Positions 1-7,411 of a stretch of 41,765 bases of DNA are shown here, one piece after another (position 1 is the first letter of the stretch; every line of letters begins with the position of its first letter). Origin of the DNA: Bacteroidales bacterium (GTDB lineage: Bacteria; Bacteroidota; Bacteroidia; Bacteroidales; UBA7960); the NCBI GenBank assembly GCA_019429365.1, contig JAHYJD010000020.1, forward strand, positions 1 to 41,765, in the 5' to 3' direction. Made by a program: the position numbers and the translations under genes. The notes under the pieces were generated by a model that saw nothing but the letters and a program-made list of their open reading frames with translations, ran no database searches and was not told the DNA's origin.

Positions 1-51
1 CATCAAATGCGAATATTACAAAATGCTGAAGGAAGGAAGTTGTTGAAATAA
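1..51 (+). CDS. 3' end of an upstream KilA-N domain protein (partial)
   Basis: The first 17 codons read HQMRILQNAEGRKLLK and a TAA stop. This is identical to the last 16 residues of the complete KilA-N gene that ends at 2466. A second copy of that gene, or at least its 3' end, therefore lies to the left of the window. Only the tail is visible, so whether the upstream copy is intact cannot be judged. Confidence 0.75.
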   Translation, partial: HQMRILQNAEGRKLLK

Positions 52-620
52 TTGGACAGGTTGCAGTTCGGCCTTAAAAAGTGTATTTTTTTCAAGTATC
101 CAAACCCCGGAAATGATCAACTACACCTACACAGCCCAGAGGAAAAAAGAAATGAGAAGTGAGAGATGAGTAGTGAGCCAAATACAGGAAAACGGGATGC
201 CCCGGGCTGGTTTAGCACGCCCCACGGGCGCTTTGTGTATGTGAACGACGGCTGGCAGAACGAGTTTCATTTGCGTGATCATGCTTCGACTTCGCTCAGC
301 ACAGGCTTGGGAAACACCCGCGTGGTGCTTTTAGAAGAGGAGGGCGATGAATATAAAACCCTGCAGCAAAACCACTACTACCCCTTCGGCATGCTCATAC
401 CCAGCCTGAGCACCAGCAACACCATTGGCGCCCTGAAAGACAACCGATACCTGTATAATAGCAAGTTGGAGCGCAGCGGAAATCCCGACCCTTCGGGAGA
501 GTTTAATGATGACTTTGATTTAAACTGGTATGTTTATCCCGATTTTATCGGGAATTACGGGGTAAAGTTTTATGATACGCAGATTGCTAGGGGGCATAGT
601 GTGGACCCGCTGGCGGAAAT
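1..620 (+). repeat. Direct repeat unit, copy 1 (KilA-N tail + spacer + RHS tip)
   Basis: Position 1 aligns to 2416. Near-identity runs through the KilA-N stop, the roughly 110-bp spacer and the RHS tip, and ends at about 619, just after the codons for DPLAE. The copy carries a 24-bp insert (283-306) that is absent from copy 2. The left end of the repeat is outside the window. Confidence 0.85.
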
Positions 621-717
621 TCCCCTGATTTATAAACCCCTTCTTCAAGAACCAATAATTTCCAGCAGTACCGATTTTCCCCTTTCGGGTAGTGTTTCCA
701 CTTCCCGGAACCGTTGA
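166..717 (+). pseudogene. Truncated orphan RHS-core tip, copy 1
   Basis: The 183-codon reading frame carries the end of a Bacteroidetes RHS core. It has the DH...LGNTRVVL motif, the NHYYPFGM motif, RYLYN, and the YGVKFYDTQIARGHSVDPLAE segment that normally precedes the variable C-terminus. The match to copy 2 stops at about 619 and the rest (IPLIYKPLLQ onward) is read-through of unrelated DNA. The conserved Trp of the usual RWHSVDPLAE is Gly here. The DHLGNTR motif is split by an in-frame 24-bp insert at 283-306 encoding ASTSLSTG. No RHS repeats or secretion region precede it, so it is most likely a displaced, decaying tip. The frame opens at ATG 166, which overlaps the stop of a tiny upstream frame (113-169, starting MINYTYTAQ) that itself resembles one RHS repeat. 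Confidence 0.7.
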
Positions 718-759
718 AGCAGTTCTGAGTTTTTCAGGCCTTCTTTTGAAATTTCATAA
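645..759 (-). pseudogene. 3' remnant resembling an XRE-family regulator/antitoxin
   Basis: On the minus strand a frame reads WLAYEISKEGLKNSELLQRF, then REVETLPERGKSVLLEIIGS and stop (TGA at 645-647). The pattern of a leucine-rich helix followed by a VExLPExxKxVLLxII helix is typical of the C-terminal tail of small helix-turn-helix regulators found with type II toxins in Bacteroidetes. No HTH is present upstream because the frame is closed by TAA just before it. It abuts the break point of RHS copy 1 at about 620 and overlaps the end of the toxin gene. This is recognition by eye, so it is only suggestive. Confidence 0.35.
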
Positions 760-1082
760 GCCAGCCAGTTTTAGCAGGGTATCAAGTTCCTTATCTGAAA
801 TATTTTCTTTTTCCCCTTTATCATAAATGGAAAGCAGATAAACAGATCCGGGCACCACTTTAACACATGTAATAACCCTGCTACCACTGCTTTTCCCTTT
901 ACCTTTGGAAGCAATTGACATACGTATTTTATAGCAGTCCTTACCAAGGGGCTGTCCTTGAATGGGTTCCGAATTAAGTGATTTATTAAAGTTAAAAAAT
1001 CACCTTTTAATGATGGGTACTTTTTAGAGAGCTTTTTAAGTTGCCTGGCAAAAAAGTCGGTGGTATAAATATTAAAGTTCAT
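754..1082 (-). pseudogene. RelE/ParE-like toxin gene with a 1-nt frameshift
   Basis: The frame begins with ATG at 1082 and reads MNFNIYTTDFFARQLKKLSK through RNPFKDSPL, then leaves the family pattern. Moving to the neighbouring frame at the GGGG run (948-951) restores a typical RelE/ParE ending: GKDCYKIRMSIASKGKGKSS, then SRVITCVKVVPGSVYLLSIY, DKGEKENISDKEL and a stop at 754-756. The span is 329 nt, exactly one short of a 110-codon gene, so one base is missing. The repaired protein would be 109 residues, the usual size of these ribosome-dependent mRNA interferases or gyrase poisons. The unrepaired frame would give a 103-residue protein lacking the beta-sheet core. It overlaps the antitoxin gene by 11 nt. 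The loss could be a real inactivation or a homopolymer sequencing error. Confidence 0.7.
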
Positions 1083-1281
1083 TTGCTAACTGCTCTGCCG
1101 TCTTTAATTTTATTTCACCTGTTAAATGTTGCTCAACCTGCTCAAGAGAAATTATAGTCCCTTCGACAAATTCTTTATCTTTTTGAGAAAGCTTTTGTAC
1201 TTTTTTAAACCCAAGGTTATTTACCAACTCTAAAAAGAAGTTGATTTTATTGTCAGGGATGTCTATCACAATTCTTTGCAT
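1072..1281 (-). CDS. Small antitoxin of a type II toxin-antitoxin pair
   Basis: This 69-residue protein starts MQRIVIDIPDNKINFFLELV and ends KLKTAEQLANEL. It has a short beta-strand start (IVIDIPD) followed by helical, charged sequence, the layout of small antitoxins that fold through a strand and then wrap the toxin with a C-terminal helix. It lies directly upstream of the RelE/ParE-like toxin on the same strand. The toxin ATG sits inside its last codons, which suggests translational coupling. A longer open frame reaches 1437, but the ATG at 1281 fits the antitoxin pattern and lies downstream of a TAnnTTTG box. It presumably neutralises the toxin and represses the locus. The family assignment rests on context and size. 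Confidence 0.65.
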   Translation of the reverse strand: MQRIVIDIPDNKINFFLELVNNLGFKKVQKLSQKDKEFVEGTIISLEQVEQHLTGEIKLKTAEQLANEL

Positions 1282-1344
1282 AACTGATAATTTTTTGAAG
1301 CATATTTTAAAATTATGCCGAAAACAATTGCCAAAAAAGCTTAA

Positions 1345-1352
1345 CAAATTTA
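1345..1352 (-). promoter_or_regulatory. Candidate -7 box for the toxin-antitoxin locus
   Basis: Read on the minus strand the bases are TAAATTTG, a match to the Bacteroidetes TAnnTTTG box. It lies about 64 nt upstream of the antitoxin ATG. No clear TTTG -33 element was seen. Confidence 0.4.
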
Positions 1353-1381
1353 CAAAACTTTGCCTCAAGTTGCATATACCC

Positions 1382-1497
1382 GGCTGCTCAGACCTGCCTT
1401 GCGCAGCGCATGAAAAATTAAATTCCTTTCTCCCCATGCTTCCGTATGGGGCTATTCACGGCTGACCCCTGACGGGGTAAGGAGATGTTTGCGAAAA
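1382..1497 (+). repeat. Composite hairpin repeat, left copy
   Basis: In order it has a block of about 26 bp (GCTGCTCAGACCTGCCTTGC with GCAGCGC), a hairpin built on CCCCAT/ATGGGG, a second short palindrome CCCCTGACGGGGT, and then GTTTGCGAA. The same series in the same orientation occurs at about 4582-4712 with different hairpin arms. The rest of the 1282-1653 gap is AT-rich DNA with no gene seen; it must hold the promoter of the KilA-N gene. Confidence 0.6.
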
Positions 1498-1653
1498 TTG
1501 GTATTAAGTTCAGACGCGATAGATCCGTTTTCGAAAAATCCGGGATAATTTCATTAGAAAAAAGGCCATTGAACTATTTTTGAAAATTGTTTTAACTTGC
1601 AAATAATTTGAGAGAATTCGATTATCAATACAAAAAATGATATTTTTCTGAAA

Positions 1654-2466
1654 ATGGCAAAGATCATTGTAAAAGATACACCAATAACCATAATATCATT
1701 TGATCAAAGAGATTACATTTCTCTTACCGACATGGCCAATGCCAAGGAAAGTGCCAGCCGTGCAGCCGATATTATTAAAAATTGGCTAAGAAACCGATAT
1801 ACGCTTGAGTTTTTAGGTACTTGGGAACAAATCAACAACCCTTGGTTTAAAGTGGTCGAATTTGACCACTTTAAATCTCAGGCTGGATTGCCAAGTTTTG
1901 TGCTGAGTGTTTCTGAATGGATTGAAAAAACCAACGCTGTTGGAATAATTGTAAAAAAAGGAAAATATGGGGGTACATATGCTTATAAAGACATTGCCTT
2001 TGAGTTTGGGTCGGCCATAAGCGTTCCTTTCAAATTGTATTTGATAAATGAATTTCAACGGCTTAAAGAAGAAGAACAAAAACAACTTGGGTGGACGGCA
2101 AAAAGGGAGTTGGCAAAATTGAATTATCGCATTCACACCGATGCAATAAAACAAAACCTGATTCCGAAACAACTTTCAGAAGCACAAATTTCTATCATTT
2201 ACGCCAATGAAGCCGACGTGCTAAATGTTGCATTATTTGGTAAAACAGCCAAACAATGGCGTGAAGAGAACCCCGACTTGAAAGGCAATATTCGCGATTA
2301 TGCAACCATAAATGAGTTGATCTGCTTGTCGAATATGGAAAACCTTAATGCCTTATTCATTAACGAAGAGATTCCCCAGAAAGAGCGCTTGGTAAAACTG
2401 AACCAAATAGCCATCCATCAAATGCGAATATTACAAAATGCTGAAGGAAGGAAGTTGTTGAAATAA
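1654..2466 (+). CDS. KilA-N domain DNA-binding protein
   Basis: A 270-residue protein. Residues about 20-140 carry a KilA-N domain: ISLTDMANAK, IIKNWLRNRYTLEFLGTWE, NPWFKVVEFDHFK, LSVSEWIEKTNAVGI and the glycine-rich GKYGGTYAYKDIAFEFG. KilA-N domains bind DNA and are common in phages and mobile elements. The second half is predominantly helical and charged with no family I recognise (QLGWTAKRELAKLNYRIHTD, then LFGKTAKQWREENPDLKGNI). Similar proteins are common in Bacteroidota and often lie near mobile elements. The codons for FKVVEFDHFK form a 30-nt inverted repeat (1846-1875). The last 16 residues are duplicated at the left window edge. Its substrate and target are unknown. Confidence 0.85.
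   Translation: MAKIIVKDTPITIISFDQRDYISLTDMANAKESASRAADIIKNWLRNRYTLEFLGTWEQINNPWFKVVEFDHFKSQAGLPSFVLSVSEWIEKTNAVGIIVKKGKYGGTYAYKDIAFEFGSAISVPFKLYLINEFQRLKEEEQKQLGWTAKRELAKLNYRIHTDAIKQNLIPKQLSEAQISIIYANEADVLNVALFGKTAKQWREENPDLKGNIRDYATINELICLSNMENLNALFINEEIPQKERLVKLNQIAIHQMRILQNAEGRKLLK
1846..1875. repeat. 30-nt inverted repeat inside the KilA-N gene
   Basis: The arms TTTAAAGTGGTC (1846-1857) and GACCACTTTAAA (1864-1875) pair perfectly over 12 bp around a 6-nt loop GAATTT. The repeat lies wholly within coding sequence. It could be an operator for the DNA-binding protein it encodes, an RNA hairpin, or codon coincidence. Confidence 0.6.
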
Positions 2467-3010
2467 TTGGACAGGTTGCAGTTCGGCCTTAAAAAGTGTA
2501 TTTTTTTCAAGTATCCAAACCCCGGAAATGATCAACTACACCAACACAGCTTCAGTGGAAAAAGAAATGAGAAGTGAGTGATGAGTAATGAGCCAAATAC
2601 AGGGAAGCGGAATGCCCCGGGCTGGTTTAGCACCCCCCACGGGCGCTTTGTGTATATCGTTGACGGCTGGCAAAACGAGTTTCATTTACGTGATCATTTT
2701 GGATATAACCGCGTAGTGCTTTTAGAAGAGGAGGGCGATGAATATAAAACCCTGCAGCAAAACCACTACTACCCCTTCGGCATGCTCATACCCAGCCTTA
2801 GCACCACCAACACCCTGGGCGCTCTGAAAGACAACCGATACCTGTATAACGGCAAGTTGGAGCGCAGCGGAAATCCCGACCCTTCGGGAGAGTTTAATGA
2901 TGATTTTGAGCTGAACTGGTACGTTTATCCCGATTTTATCGGGAATTACGGGGTAAAGTTTTATGATGCGCAGATTGCCAGGTGGCATAGCGTGGACCCG
3001 TTGGCGGAAG
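2416..3010 (+). repeat. Direct repeat unit, copy 2
   Basis: This stretch matches 1-620 with few changes, apart from the 24-bp insert present only in copy 1. It covers the last codons of the KilA-N gene, the spacer, and the RHS tip up to the DPLAE codons. The distance between units is about 2.4 kb. Confidence 0.85.
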
Positions 3011-3639
3011 AAAGAATTTGGTTGTCTCCATATAATTACGTTCAAAATAATCCAATTATTAGAATTGACCCTGACGGAAAAATTCATTGGAGGGTTGTTG
3101 GCAAAGGGGCTTTAGGCTTCGCCGGTGGGGTAGGAAGTCTTGCTTTGGCTGCAACGTTAACTCCTACTGGAATTGTTACTCCTGCTGCAGGATATTTAGC
3201 CGTTCAAGGAATTGCAGGGGCATCTTTTGGGGTTACTACTATGGTTATTGGATTTGCCTCACCTTCCTCTGAAGAAACCAGAGATTTGGCAAATTCAACG
3301 CCTTCTTGCTTATTTGATTTAATGGGAATAATGTATCAACAATCTAACGATATTGAAAGTGAAATGCCAAGGACAGTTGCTCAGAGCATTTCATTAATGA
3401 CATCCTTTTCTTTATCAAAAGCACCAAATACAGCTTCAAATGGAGTCAGAATCGCCACAGATTTAATAACTGCTGTACAAGGAGTAAATATAGCTGTGGA
3501 GTCTAATAATGAGAAAGCAAATACCCATTCTGACCCCCAAAGAAATAATAATGCAAGTGGTTCTCCTCAAAATAATAATGACTCCGTAAGAGTAAGTTCA
3601 TTGCCAGATGAAAAATATATTGGTTCGATACCAAAATGA
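2581..3639 (+). CDS. Orphan RHS-core tip with unique C-terminal extension
   Basis: A protein of 352 residues from ATG 2581 (a GTG one codon earlier is possible). Residues 1 to about 160 are the end of an RHS core: NHYYPFGM, RYLYNGKLERSGNPDPSGEF, IARWHSVDPLAEERIWLSPY and NYVQNNPIIRIDPDGK. In RHS and other polymorphic toxins the variable toxin starts right after this last motif. Here it is followed by a Gly/Ala-rich hydrophobic stretch at about 170-220 (GKGALGFAGGVGSLALAATL and beyond) and then a polar, Asn/Ser-rich tail ending DEKYIGSIPK. I recognise no nuclease or deaminase signature. There is no signal peptide, no RHS repeat array and no secretion domain, so it looks like a displaced tip. 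ATG 2581 overlaps the stop of a tiny upstream frame (2528-2581, starting MINYTNTAS). The 3' end overlaps the next gene by ATGA. Confidence 0.75.
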   Translation: MSNEPNTGKRNAPGWFSTPHGRFVYIVDGWQNEFHLRDHFGYNRVVLLEEEGDEYKTLQQNHYYPFGMLIPSLSTTNTLGALKDNRYLYNGKLERSGNPDPSGEFNDDFELNWYVYPDFIGNYGVKFYDAQIARWHSVDPLAEERIWLSPYNYVQNNPIIRIDPDGKIHWRVVGKGALGFAGGVGSLALAATLTPTGIVTPAAGYLAVQGIAGASFGVTTMVIGFASPSSEETRDLANSTPSCLFDLMGIMYQQSNDIESEMPRTVAQSISLMTSFSLSKAPNTASNGVRIATDLITAVQGVNIAVESNNEKANTHSDPQRNNNASGSPQNNNDSVRVSSLPDEKYIGSIPK

Positions 3640-4205
3640 AAAATTATAAGTCGGAAATACAACCCGGATTTATCCGCATTTTATTTTCCTATTTAAAAAA
3701 ATATGGGGTTTGGATATTATTTTTATGGGTGGTCTTTTTTTTAATGCTGAGAAATCAAAATGTGTCGAATGTTTTATTGATTTTAATTATTCTGCCCTTG
3801 TTTATCGGCTATGGTCGTTCATATCCACAAAATAAAATTATCTATAAAGTGGAGATTGACTATTTGAATAAAAAAATTATTTTACATAGTTATGTACTTC
3901 TAAAGCATAGGTCAATCATTCCATTTGAACGACTTTATTTTGAATGTCTTAAAAAAGAAGTAAATGATATGAATGGAGAGGTGCTAATTGTTTTTGGAAA
4001 AAAACCTTGGCCGGTAGTAGGTAAAATTAATTCCTCTGAAATGTCAACTCGGTGGGAACAAGAACAAATTAAAGAATTGACCTTGGAGTTAAATAAAATA
4101 AAAAAATTACATCCTTTATGGAGACCCAAAACTCTATTCTCAAGAAAGGCTTTTTTTACAAATTATGCGCCTCTTATGAACCAGGAGAACAACAAAATTA
4201 ATTAA
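3636..4205 (+). CDS. Two-helix membrane protein, possible RHS partner/immunity protein
   Basis: A 189-residue protein whose ATG overlaps the RHS stop (ATGA), implying coupled translation. Two N-terminal membrane helices are visible: YGVWILFLWVVFFLML (about 24-39) and VSNVLLILIILPLFIGYG (about 44-61). A soluble part follows with alternating hydrophobic strands (YKVEIDYLNKKIILHSYVLL, then HRSIIPFERLYFECL) and a charged helix at about 145-160. This strand-rich layout recalls small membrane-anchored PH-like proteins, but no family is certain. Genes directly downstream of RHS tips often encode cognate immunity proteins, so that is the leading idea; it is inference from position. Its AT-rich composition matches that of the RHS tail and not the downstream core genes. 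Confidence 0.6.
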   Translation: MKNYKSEIQPGFIRILFSYLKKYGVWILFLWVVFFLMLRNQNVSNVLLILIILPLFIGYGRSYPQNKIIYKVEIDYLNKKIILHSYVLLKHRSIIPFERLYFECLKKEVNDMNGEVLIVFGKKPWPVVGKINSSEMSTRWEQEQIKELTLELNKIKKLHPLWRPKTLFSRKAFFTNYAPLMNQENNKIN

Positions 4206-4581
4206 TTTAAATTGAAACCCCCGCTGAGCAGAATTTGTAATTCCGCTCTGAACATAGCAGAATTTAGCTTCGCTGAACTCCCTCCGGTCGGTTGCATTTC
4301 TGCCCTGAATTTTGCAGAATTTTCAATTCAAAAACCAGAACAAATTGGGCTAACCCCTTGCTACCCTTTCGGCCTTGAAAAAAACCTGGTAACAAGGCAA
4401 GAGAGGGGAGCGTGAAAAAATTTGCAGTCCCGCTCTTGCGGGACCTTAAATTTTTTAGCGTAGCGAACGCTGACTTGTCAGGTTTTTTTCGAAGCCTTGA
4501 TTTTTGCTCCACTTTTTATCAAGAAAAAGTGGAAATAAAAGATTGTAATTCAACACCTATCCCTTGCGCTGCGACGGAGCC

Positions 4582-4712
4582 TCTGCTGTTCAGACCGGCC
4601 TTGCGCAGCGCCCGATTTGTGGTTGCTCCTTAACCCAGGGTTACGCTCGTTTCACTCGCTCACCCTGGGCTATAATAGTTTTACCCCTTCAGGGTAATAA
4701 CGTGTTTGCGAA
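4582..4712 (+). repeat. Composite hairpin repeat, right copy
   Basis: It begins with GCTGTTCAGACCGGCCTTGC and GCAGCGC, nearly the same block as at 1382. A large hairpin follows with arms ACCCAGGGT and ACCCTGGGC around TACGCTCGTTTCACTCGCTC, then the short palindrome ACCCCTTCAGGGT and GTTTGCGAA. The order and orientation match the left copy. Similar hairpins built on CCCAGGGT...ACCCTGGG are, as I recall, widespread between genes in Bacteroidota. Confidence 0.6.
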
Positions 4713-4955
4713 GAATTTGCTTTAATAATGTCGCCACTATGCGGCTTGCAAAGGTGGGTGTGCTTTAATTTTTCTACCATAATTTCACCGCTACGCGGCT
4801 TTTTCAAAAAGCTTTGGCCTTCAGACTTCCGTCTTTTTTGCTGCATACTGACTTCTGCCAATTGAATTTTACCTCCTGCCGCTACCTCCTTCGCCACTTT
4901 CCCAATGCCACATGCCCCATGCCCTTGGCATTTCTTCCGACTCATTTTTTTCAAT

Positions 4956-4963
4956 TATCTTTG
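4956..4963 (+). promoter_or_regulatory. -7 box for hydF
   Basis: TATCTTTG fits the Bacteroidetes TAnnTTTG consensus and lies 18 nt upstream of the hydF ATG at 4982. It supports the short start, not the longer frame that opens at 4814. Confidence 0.55.
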
Positions 4964-4981
4964 CACCTGATTAAAAAAGCT

Positions 4982-6211
4982 ATGGCAAAAGGCAGGGAAT
5001 CCAAACCGCATATCGGCATTTTTGGGCGGCGCAACAACGGCAAAAGCTCGTTTATCAATGCGCTGGCCGGGCAGGACATTGCCATTGTGTCGGATGTACC
5101 TGGAACTACCACCGACCCTGTGCGCAAGTCGATGGAGATTCCGGGCATTGGTCCGGCCATTTTGGTCGATACCGCCGGCATTGACGACACCGGCGAGTTG
5201 GGAGCCAAACGCGTTAGCCGATCGCTTTCCGTCTTGCGAACGGTAGATTTGGCCATTTTGGTCATTACGAATAATGCTTTTGAAGAATACGAGAAAAAGC
5301 TGGTAATGGCCTTCCGCGATCATAATGTGCCTTTTGTTGTGATACATAATAAGTCTGACCTGGTTCCCCTTAGCGGGAAGCTGAAGGAACGTCTGTCAAT
5401 GGAGTTCAGTGCAATGACACTGGAGTTCTGTGCCCTGCACCCGCAAAATGTAGAAGAGGTGATCGCCGCCCTTCGGCAAACCATACCCGAAACGGCCTAT
5501 AGCTCCAACAGCTTGCTGGGCGACCTGCTGAGCTATGGCGACCTGGTGCTGCTGATCACTCCCATTGATATTGAAGCCCCCGAAGGACGACTAATCCTGC
5601 CACAGGTGCAGGCCATTCGTGATATTCTCGATAATGACTGCACTGCCGTGGTGGTGAAGGAAAAAGAGGTGGATGCCCTGCTGAAGGTGCTGCAGCCCCG
5701 TCCCAAGCTGGTGGTGACCGACAGCCAGGTATTTCTCAAGGCCGATGCATCGGTGCCAAAAGACATCCCGCTTACCAGCTTCAGCATTATGCTGGCCCGT
5801 CATAAGGGCGACTTTGAAAACTATTTGAAGGGCACTCCAAAGATCGCCGAACTGAAAGATGGCGACCGGGTGCTTATCCTTGAGTCGTGCACCCATCATG
5901 TGTCGTGCGATGATATTGGCCGCATGAAGATTCCCCGTTGGATGAGCAACTACACCGGCAAAAAGCTTGAGTTCGATGTGGTAGCCGGGCTGGGCGACAC
6001 CCCGCGACCCATCACCGATTATTCCCTGGTGGTGCAATGCGGCGGCTGCGTCATTACCCGCAAGCAGGTTATTGGCAGGCTCAAAGCCGCCGTGGATGCC
6101 GGCGTACCCGTAACAAACTATGGCATGGCCATTGCCTGGATGCATGGCATTTACCAGCGCGCAGTCGCCCCTTTCACAAAAATGGAAAAAGCAGGGGAGA
6201 GTTATTTGTGA
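4982..6211 (+). CDS. hydF: [FeFe]-hydrogenase maturation GTPase HydF
   Basis: HydF is the scaffold on which the 2Fe subcluster of the H-cluster is assembled before transfer to apo-hydrogenase. The 409-residue protein has an Era-like GTPase domain: P-loop GRRNNGKSS (15-23), a PGTTTDP switch, DTAG, and NKSD. A dimerisation region follows. The C-terminal FeS domain has Cys303-x-His305 (CTH), then Gln352-Cys353-Gly-Gly-Cys356. The published family signature is CxHx(46-53)HCxxC; the spacing here is 46 but the His before CxxC is Gln. The end MAIAWMHGIYQRAV is also typical. ATG 4982 gives the normal N-terminus directly before the P-loop and lies behind a TAnnTTTG box; the longer open frame adds unrelated repeat-derived sequence. 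hydE follows after about 105 bp. Confidence 0.95.
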   Translation: MAKGRESKPHIGIFGRRNNGKSSFINALAGQDIAIVSDVPGTTTDPVRKSMEIPGIGPAILVDTAGIDDTGELGAKRVSRSLSVLRTVDLAILVITNNAFEEYEKKLVMAFRDHNVPFVVIHNKSDLVPLSGKLKERLSMEFSAMTLEFCALHPQNVEEVIAALRQTIPETAYSSNSLLGDLLSYGDLVLLITPIDIEAPEGRLILPQVQAIRDILDNDCTAVVVKEKEVDALLKVLQPRPKLVVTDSQVFLKADASVPKDIPLTSFSIMLARHKGDFENYLKGTPKIAELKDGDRVLILESCTHHVSCDDIGRMKIPRWMSNYTGKKLEFDVVAGLGDTPRPITDYSLVVQCGGCVITRKQVIGRLKAAVDAGVPVTNYGMAIAWMHGIYQRAVAPFTKMEKAGESYL

Positions 6212-6229
6212 AGCAGGACCCTCCCCCAG

Positions 6230-6316: not shown

Positions 6317-7411
6317 ATGCAAAATACCATCCAACATATTCTCGAAAAGGAAACCTTCGAAAAGCCCGACCTGGTGGCCTTGTTATCGGCCAATGAGGAG
6401 GAGCGCAAATTTATTTTTGAAAAAGCTGCGGCTATAAAAGAAGAGTATGTGGGCAAGAAGGTGTATTACCGCGGACTGATTGAGTTTTCTAACCTTTGCG
6501 GGAAGAACTGCCTCTATTGCGGCATACGCGCAGGCAATAAAAACACCCACCGTTACGAAGTGGAGGAGCAGGAAGTGATCGATGCCGCCCGCTATGCCTG
6601 GGAGAACAAGTTTGGCAGCGTGGTAATACAGGCAGGTGAGCGTTCGGATAAGAAATTCGTGGACCGCATTGAACGCATGGTGCATGAGATTAAAACGCTT
6701 AGCAATGCCGAACTGGGCATAACCCTTTCGCTGGGCGAGCAAAGCGAGGAGACTTACCGCCGCTGGTTTGAGGCTGGGGCGCACCGCTACCTGCTTCGTA
6801 TTGAAGTGTCTAATCCTGATTTGTATCCCAAATACCATCCCCACAACAAAAAGCACGATTACCAGGCCCGCCTCGACTGTCTTCATTTGCTTAGAAAGGT
6901 AGGTTATCAGGTTGGCTCGGGCGTTATGATCGGGCTGCCCTTCCAAACCCTGGAAGACCTGGCCGACGACCTGCTCTTTTTACGCGAACACGACATCGAC
7001 ATGGTGGGCATGGGCCCCTACATCGAGCACGAAGACACCCCGCTTTTTAAGTATAAGGACCAGCTCCTGCCAAAAATGGACCGTTTTTACCTTTCGTTGA
7101 AAATGGTGGCCATACTGCGCATCATGATGAAAGACATAAACATTGCCGCCACCACTGCCATGCAGGCCATTGATCCGCTGGGGCGGGAAAAGGCCGTGAA
7201 GGTGGGCGCCAACATTATTATGCCCAACCTCACCCCAACCAAATACCGCGAAGATTATTTGCTTTACGAAGACAAGCCCTGCACCGACGAAGACGCCGAG
7301 GAGTGCAGCCGCTGCCTCGAAGCTCGCATTCATATGGCAGGCGGCGAAGTGGGCTACGGTGAGTGGGGCGATTCGAAACACTTCGAAAACCGAAAGAAAG
7401 AAGAAGATTAG
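6317..7411 (+). CDS. hydE: [FeFe]-hydrogenase maturase HydE (radical SAM)
   Basis: HydE is a radical SAM enzyme that acts on the cysteine-bound iron synthon made by HydG on the way to the 2Fe subcluster. The 364-residue protein has the radical SAM cluster C61-x3-C65-x2-C68 (in NLCGKNCLYCGIR), the GSVVIQAGE and ITLSLGE strands, the YLLRIE segment and the GVMIGLP motif of the barrel. It also has a second cluster motif near the C-terminus, C322-x7-C330-x2-C333, as in Thermotoga HydE. This separates it from BioB and PylB. It lies 105 bp after hydF on the same strand. No hydG is visible on either side in this window. Confidence 0.95.
   Translation: MQNTIQHILEKETFEKPDLVALLSANEEERKFIFEKAAAIKEEYVGKKVYYRGLIEFSNLCGKNCLYCGIRAGNKNTHRYEVEEQEVIDAARYAWENKFGSVVIQAGERSDKKFVDRIERMVHEIKTLSNAELGITLSLGEQSEETYRRWFEAGAHRYLLRIEVSNPDLYPKYHPHNKKHDYQARLDCLHLLRKVGYQVGSGVMIGLPFQTLEDLADDLLFLREHDIDMVGMGPYIEHEDTPLFKYKDQLLPKMDRFYLSLKMVAILRIMMKDINIAATTAMQAIDPLGREKAVKVGANIIMPNLTPTKYREDYLLYEDKPCTDEDAEECSRCLEARIHMAGGEVGYGEWGDSKHFENRKKEED

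What the first reader, a model, noticed from the sequence alone, without database searches (positions are those of the whole stretch)
1..3010. Tandem units of KilA-N gene end plus orphan RHS tip
The window opens inside a direct repeat of 2416-3010. Each unit joins the 3' end of a KilA-N gene to an RHS-core tip through a conserved spacer of about 110 bp. Orphan RHS/CDI tip arrays are known, but repeated linkage of the tips to a KilA-N DNA-binding protein gene suggests a unit that moves or recombines as a whole. The KilA-N gene could be the mobilising or regulatory partner.
Basis: partly seen in the sequence, partly recalled or inferred. Interest (0 to 1): 0.62.

Follow-up and report, generated by a model that had tools for sequence, protein, structure and literature searches.

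The report
Defence genes shuffled among RHS tips
In a genus of uncultured Bacteroidales bacteria, leftover ends of RHS toxin genes form patchworks in the chromosome in which toxin-antitoxin genes and a suspected anti-phage gene (KilA-N) sit joined to the same RHS sequence, and the joined pieces are found at different places in different species, probably moved by recombination.

Summary
The repeat is real: 1-618 matches 2416-3009 at 90% identity, the first 127 bases identically. The window is a whole contig, so its left edge is an assembly break. The '110-bp spacer' is about 58 bp of KilA-N 3' flank plus a degenerate orphan-tip start. A sister species (G046) has the same KilA-N, spacer and tip start (89% DNA identity, gene 96.7%) at another locus, beside a UvrD/PcrA-type helicase. 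G046 lacks it at hydF and G000 lacks it at the helicase, while core genes there are 74-80% identical: the block moved as a piece. The pairing is not general: of 79 other close KilA-N loci, none has an adjacent recognisable tip. KilA-N is one of several passengers: Phd-Doc and RelE-type modules share tip junctions, and ParE/RelE toxins cluster near tips (13 of 72; 0.55 expected). KilA-N matches PADLOC's untested candidate PDC-S22; relatives lie beside restriction genes and near integrases in phages. Best reading: orphan tips act as homology arms that shuffle toxin-antitoxin and defence genes. That KilA-N mobilises or regulates tips is not supported.

The parts
1..51 (+). 3' end of a KilA-N gene (copy 1); the rest lies off the contig
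   Evidence: identical to 2416-2466; contig edge
52..165 (+). spacer 1: KilA-N 3' flank (to about 109) and remnant of the orphan-tip start
166..717 (+). RHS tip 1, truncated after the core (about 617); no recognisable toxin part; a 24-bp insertion at 283-306 relative to copy 2
   Evidence: the same truncated tip end is in G044:C25
771..1082 (-). RelE-type toxin gene, reading frame disrupted here; open in the sister species G044
   Evidence: the G044 copy matches PF06296
1075..1284 (-). putative antitoxin gene paired with it (no family match)
1380..1653 (.). intergenic stretch upstream of KilA-N with repeats shared with other array contigs
1654..2466 (+). KilA-N protein gene, 270 aa, PF04383 / PADLOC PDC-S22 / phrog_2657
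2467..2577 (+). spacer 2: about 58 bp KilA-N 3' flank (to about 2524) and a degenerate orphan-tip start
2578..3639 (+). orphan RHS tip 2: RHS core to about 3081, then a C-terminal domain without family match
3636..4205 (+). small hydrophobic protein directly downstream, candidate immunity protein
   Evidence: position and hydrophobic N-terminal part; no convincing family match
4206..4920 (.). zone of dispersed repeats, including one at 4218-4265, shared with other array contigs
4982..6211 (+). hydF, the conserved right-hand anchor of the locus
   Evidence: TIGR03918, 6.5e-152; synteny

Best explanation
Orphan RHS tips in this Bacteroidales genus form mosaic arrays at several chromosomal sites. 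Their shared sequences (core, degenerate start and dispersed repeats) act as homology arms, so that whatever gene has become joined to a tip is exchanged with it by homologous recombination between arrays, including after transfer from other species. The passengers are toxin/immunity tips, type II toxin-antitoxin modules and, here, a single-gene phage-defence candidate (KilA-N, PDC-S22). Shown: shared junctions, presence/absence at orthologous loci, excess similarity of the block over core genes, clustering of ParE/RelE toxins near tips. Inferred: homologous recombination as the mechanism, transfer between species as the source, and an anti-phage role for KilA-N as the reason it is kept.
For: (1) Window 1400-2648 matches G046:C136 2797-4024 at 89% (KilA-N gene 96.7%) at another locus, whereas the helicase gene is 80% and the hydF-hydE region 74-78% identical between the same two genomes. 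(2) At the hydF locus of G044, window 370-1434 and 4921-6212 align at 96% and 95%, but 1435-4920 (KilA-N, tip 2, downstream gene) is replaced by 890 bp holding a tip start joined to a ParE/RelE-type module. G046 has 2.1 kb there and no match to tip or KilA-N. At the helicase locus, G044 has the two flanking genes end to end and G000 has a ParE-type module, one repeat match and no tip or KilA-N. (3) The RelE-type module is joined to tips at the same base in G046:C136, G044:C25, G044:C40 and G000:C160, which I count as three loci (C40 and C160 align with each other), and below two different upstream tip alleles. Phd-Doc with its tip is shared by G046 and contig G041:C280 at 92% over 1120 bp (DOC family). 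(4) Copies 1 and 2 are identical through KilA-N end and flank and diverge from inside the tip start; similarity of G044 to the window starts inside a tip (window 370). (5) PF05016 toxins: 13 of 72 matches in 47 genomes lie within 3 kb of a tip, 0.55 expected under uniform placement. (6) Defence link of KilA-N: PDC-S22, 428.9 bits; beside restriction-modification genes in at least 5 of 44 loci (only those five were scanned one by one); between repressor and integrase in Streptococcus satellite phage Javan588 and next to the integrase of Staphylococcus phage EW.
Against: No recombination event was observed, only its products. Moving an array segment by any other route would also carry junctions along. 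KilA-N linkage rests on two species. The enrichment test assumes uniform placement, uses rounded genome sizes and counts several toxins of one contig separately (10 distinct contigs of 6 genomes); tips and toxin-antitoxin genes may both simply accumulate in variable regions. All genomes of the genus are fragmented bins; contig G041:C280 is 95% identical to G044 across genus labels and may be mis-binned. PDC-S22 is a candidate label, not a tested function; the phage database calls the family a transcriptional regulator.
Confidence: 0.62

Rival explanations
1. Chance neighbours in a variable region: toxin-antitoxin genes, KilA-N and RHS remnants all gather in the same non-essential hotspots, and the KilA-N/tip joint arose once and was carried along by ordinary transfer of chromosome segments; tips play no active part.
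For: Only two species show the KilA-N joint; KilA-N relatives elsewhere have other flanks; G045 has KilA-N genes and no tip match.
Against: Several unrelated passengers share tip junctions, and similarity between copies or genomes starts or stops inside tips; toxin density near tips is far above a uniform expectation.
Confidence: 0.25
2. One reading: KilA-N is a functional partner that mobilises the tips or controls their expression.
For: KilA-N is a DNA-binding domain; the joint is conserved in two species.
Against: No adjacent tip in 79 other close relatives or in 8 other loci of the family; the only Pfam match of the protein is the KilA-N domain, no recombinase; in G000 the tips on C109, C80, C50 and C160 are on contigs without a KilA-N match.
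Confidence: 0.06
3. The repeat is an assembly artefact or a mixture of strains in the bin.
For: The contig starts exactly 127 bases before the first mismatch; the genome is a 224-contig bin with 4.88% contamination.
Against: The KilA-N/tip joint is in a separate assembly of another species; tip 1 with the RelE module is in G044; in a k-mer assembly such a joint should be present in reads (recalled reasoning).
Confidence: 0.07

Closest known systems
Orphan Rhs toxin/immunity modules and their recombination with the main rhs gene (Salmonella; PMC3967940, passages seen)
   Same: Displaced RHS tips with a downstream small gene; a shared stretch of a few hundred bases (522 bp there) is proposed to allow rearrangement.
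   Different: Here no long RHS frame was found in the genome (longest frame with TIGR03696 453 aa), and unrelated toxin-antitoxin and KilA-N genes are joined to the tips.
Polymorphic toxin cassettes and polyimmunity loci (PMC3482391, passages seen)
   Same: Standalone tips with variable C-terminal domains, prone to lateral transfer.
   Different: KilA-N does not occur in the held part of that text; shared tip junctions with toxin-antitoxin modules were not in the passages seen.
PADLOC PDC-S22 (candidate single-gene phage defence)
   Same: The KilA-N protein matches the model over nearly its whole length.
   Different: A candidate model; I found no tested mechanism (one paper, passage seen, reports co-occurrence only). 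No held paper has both 'KilA-N' and 'Rhs'.
Rhs toxin/immunity pairs acting as type II toxin-antitoxin loci (Salmonella; PMC7043789, abstract seen)
   Same: Could explain why orphan tips persist without a delivery gene.
   Different: Not tested here.

Membership tests
KilA-N domain proteins (PF04383) | Score above the curated cut-off | tested here: met
   64.4 bits, cut-off 23.8; model residues 1-136 align with the Mbp1 DNA-binding domain, Z 7.5
PADLOC PDC-S22 | Match to the profile over its length | tested here: met
   428.9 bits, positions 6-271 of 281
PADLOC PDC-S22 | Protection against phage | not testable with these tools
   -
Orphan RHS tip (tip 2) | Rhs_assc_core above the cut-off | tested here: met
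   45.1 bits, cut-off 32.5
Orphan RHS tip (tip 1) | Rhs_assc_core above the cut-off | tested here: not met
   no family; truncated copy
Orphan RHS tip | Lacks the N-terminal RHS part; displaced from a full gene | tested here: met
   353-aa frame; none of the six TIGR03696 matches in G000 lies in a frame over 453 aa (bin 95.9% complete, the C50 frame is cut by the contig end)
Orphan RHS tip | C-terminal toxin with cognate immunity | tested here: inconclusive
   no family match for the C-terminal part or the downstream protein; the G046 tip matches Toxin-JAB1
DdrC (Deinococcus) fold | Both domains superpose | tested here: inconclusive
   Foldseek E 3.8e-3, prob 0.97; VIA Z 5.6-5.8, either 83 residues of the helical part at 4.5 A or 169-181 residues at 12-14 A; no sequence match

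The most novel reading that the evidence does not exclude
RHS tip arrays in Bacteroidales are an integron-like cassette platform without an integrase: the conserved tip core, tip start and dispersed repeats are general-purpose homology arms through which toxin-antitoxin and anti-phage genes are captured, stored and exchanged between loci and species. In this view orphan tips persist without a parental RHS gene because they serve this storage role.
Probability: 0.28. Interest if true: 0.7.

Novelty: new variant of a known kind. Interest (0 to 1): 0.5.

Why it matters
RHS loci are known rearrangement hotspots for toxin tips. If tips also carry toxin-antitoxin and defence genes between arrays, orphan tips would be a marker for finding new defence genes, and the question of why orphan tips accumulate without a delivery gene becomes testable by comparing strains at a few named loci.

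Tried and rejected
KilA-N as a mobile element with its own ends: the 300 bp upstream and 160 bp downstream of the window's KilA-N found no match beside KilA-N in the loci tested (88 loci held, of which the four with the gene on the minus strand were not tested, so 84). A hairpin-like sequence follows KilA-N in three loci (L086, L087, L089) but not in the window.

A left-hand continuation of the contig: searches of the own genome with window 607-1500, 1285-2560 and 2400-3060 found no contig that continues copy 1.

Check of the k = 127 reading on other contigs: exact shared words between the window and the stretches held of C109, C80, C160 and C50 reached the 55-base class at most (77 between C109 and C80), so the reading rests on the window's own two copies.

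Names for the C-terminal domain of tip 2 and the downstream protein: no convincing family.

DdrC-like function for KilA-N: the fold match is weak (the tool warns that Z under 8 may be a common arrangement), so kept only as a lead. No held paper has both DdrC and KilA-N.

Defence neighbourhood with control: 86 nearest neighbours of 44 KilA-N loci (44 of 79, picked by hand) matched 240 PADLOC families; 61 ORFs at least 3.5 kb away, from 36 of 37 of those loci tried, matched 22. Many models overlap on one protein, so I give no ratio. The far ORFs also include defence genes (PDC-S02, a type II restriction enzyme, MzaA). The clear part is the five loci with restriction genes on one side (L088, L104) or both (L112, L116, L145), which I picked because the genes abut.

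Limits of the tip search: the profile was built from 35 tips of this one family, so more distant RHS tips may be missed, and several of the 79 loci are cut short by contig ends.

Rows dropped: L085 and L090 were left out of the KilA-N alignment because the translation of the stated coordinates contained a stop; L099, L052 and L053, listed, were also left out of the final one, and L209-L211 were aligned apart. Alignment A2 holds 21 of the 79 other genome loci, picked by hand, plus five loci of the family, three viral contigs and the window. In the enrichment test eight tip matches were added to the TIGR03696 list; without them the result is 8 of 72 against 0.51 expected. One of the 72 toxin matches is under the family cut-off.

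Papers: searches. Passages seen: PMC12813430, PMC11514479, PMC3482391, PMC3967940. Abstract and section list: PMC7043789. Others: listings only.

Full report
What is there. The window is a complete 41,765-bp contig (C163) of a 224-contig bin, G000, 3.57 Mb, 95.9% complete, 4.88% contamination. From left to right the array reads: KilA-N tail (1-51), spacer, truncated tip 1 (166-717), a RelE-type module on the minus strand whose toxin frame is disrupted (771-1284), a repeat zone, KilA-N (1654-2466), spacer, tip 2 (2578-3639), a small hydrophobic protein (3636-4205), a second repeat zone, then hydF and hydE.

The repeat. Copy 1 (1-618) and copy 2 (2416-3009) share 555 of 619 aligned positions. 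The first 127 bases are identical and the first difference is at base 128. A contig that begins exactly 127 bases before a divergence is what a k = 127 assembly graph gives (recalled), so the repeat probably continues to the left. It also means that identity through the KilA-N tail and flank is at least 127 bases while the rest differs by about a tenth: the copies look like mosaics whose boundary lies at the tip start.

The spacer. In other orphan tips of the same genome (C80, C109) the frame runs on from the tip start (MINYTYTA..GAK..) into the core. In the window and in several relatives that stretch is a short degenerate version. The KilA-N 3' flank meets it just upstream of the tip start. 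So the conserved spacer looks less like a regulatory linker than like the scar where a KilA-N gene was joined to an orphan tip.

Is the pairing general? In the family (47 genomes) KilA-N relatives occur in 8 genomes (10 matches including the window). I fetched the nine others; only G046 has a tip near. In GTDB genomes 80 loci of at least 553 relatives were kept. One is the G046 contig; of the other 79, none has an adjacent tip and two have one about 4-5 kb away (L098, L090; several loci are cut by contig ends, and the profile came from tips of this family). Three viral-contig relatives have none. The pairing is therefore specific to this genus as far as seen, and not universal in it: G045 has two KilA-N genes and no tip match.

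Does the block move? Its positions say so. G046 carries it next to a UvrD/PcrA-type helicase; the corresponding place in G044 has no insertion, and in G000 a ParE-type module and one repeat match. At the hydF place G046 has 2.1 kb without tip or KilA-N; G044 has an array without KilA-N; the G045 contig with hydF shows neither in 10.2 kb. The block is more alike between G000 and G046 (gene 96.7%, whole 89%) than the core genes at these loci (74-80%), which points to recent transfer.

KilA-N is one passenger among several. A Phd-Doc module with its tip is shared by G046 and contig G041:C280 (92% over 1120 bp). A RelE-type module is joined to tips at the same base in four contigs from what I count as three loci. 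Over 47 genomes, 13 of 72 PF05016 matches lie within 3 kb of a tip, against 0.55 expected; restricted to the curated RHS model, 8 of 72 against 0.51. The window's own RelE-type toxin is of another family (PF06296 in G044) and is not in that count. The null assumes uniform placement, and short repeat-rich contigs may inflate the result.

What the KilA-N protein may do. It matches PDC-S22, a candidate defence model. Relatives are in 13 phage and 24 plasmid records at the limits used. In satellite phage Javan588 the gene lies between repressor and integrase; in phage EW it is next to the integrase, with two genes between it and the annotated repressor. In an Alistipes plasmid two genes lie between it and a putative abortive infection protein. 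In at least 5 of 44 genome loci it abuts restriction-modification genes. The AlphaFold model (pLDDT 80.1, pTM 0.53) has an N-terminal Mbp1-like DNA-binding fold (Z 7.5) and a helical C-terminal part; Foldseek ranks Deinococcus DdrC first (E 3.8e-3), a weak match. An anti-phage role is inferred, not shown; the phage library files the family under transcription regulation.

Mechanism. The simplest account is homologous recombination between tip cores, tip starts and dispersed repeats of different arrays, with occasional entry of DNA from other species. The tips carry along whatever was once inserted beside them. No long RHS frame was found in G000, so switching of a main RHS gene's tip is unlikely to be what keeps these arrays; toxin-immunity addiction (as described for Salmonella, PMC7043789, abstract) or the benefit of the passengers may do so. 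This paragraph is inference.

Verdict.

Noticed in passing
L086 about 6832-6895, L087 about 6834-6898, L089 about 6836-6900: A similar hairpin-like sequence follows the KilA-N stop in three Bacteroidota records; the pattern occurs once per locus in the flanks held.
   Followed up: partly
L088, L104, L112, L116, L145: KilA-N (PDC-S22) sits directly beside restriction-modification genes, in L112, L116 and L145 between type I subunit genes.
   Followed up: partly
L209 6806-7822; L210 4001-4834: KilA-N relatives lie beside the integrase of a Streptococcus satellite phage and of Staphylococcus phage EW, a place where superinfection genes are often found (recalled).
   Followed up: partly
window 1654-2466 (model m7c08161fb921): The predicted fold ranks Deinococcus DdrC first in the PDB, with no sequence similarity; weak but touching both domains.
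   Followed up: partly
window 771-1082: RelE-type toxin frame disrupted here but open in the sister species at the same locus (L174 2096-2425).
   Followed up: no
window 283-306: A 24-bp insertion in tip 1, relative to tip 2, that keeps the frame open.
   Followed up: no
G041:C280 (L168) 1-1364: 95% identical to G044:C25 across genus labels; perhaps mis-binned or recently transferred.
   Followed up: no
window 4206-4920 and 1380-1539: Dispersed repeats shared with several array contigs (C160, C50, C218, and contigs of G044, G046, G041); no transposase for them was looked for.
   Followed up: partly
G000:C218 80972-82977 (L205): Two more RHS core matches in the own genome (one weak), with a repeat at 84630-84790 like the one upstream of the window's KilA-N.
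   Followed up: no
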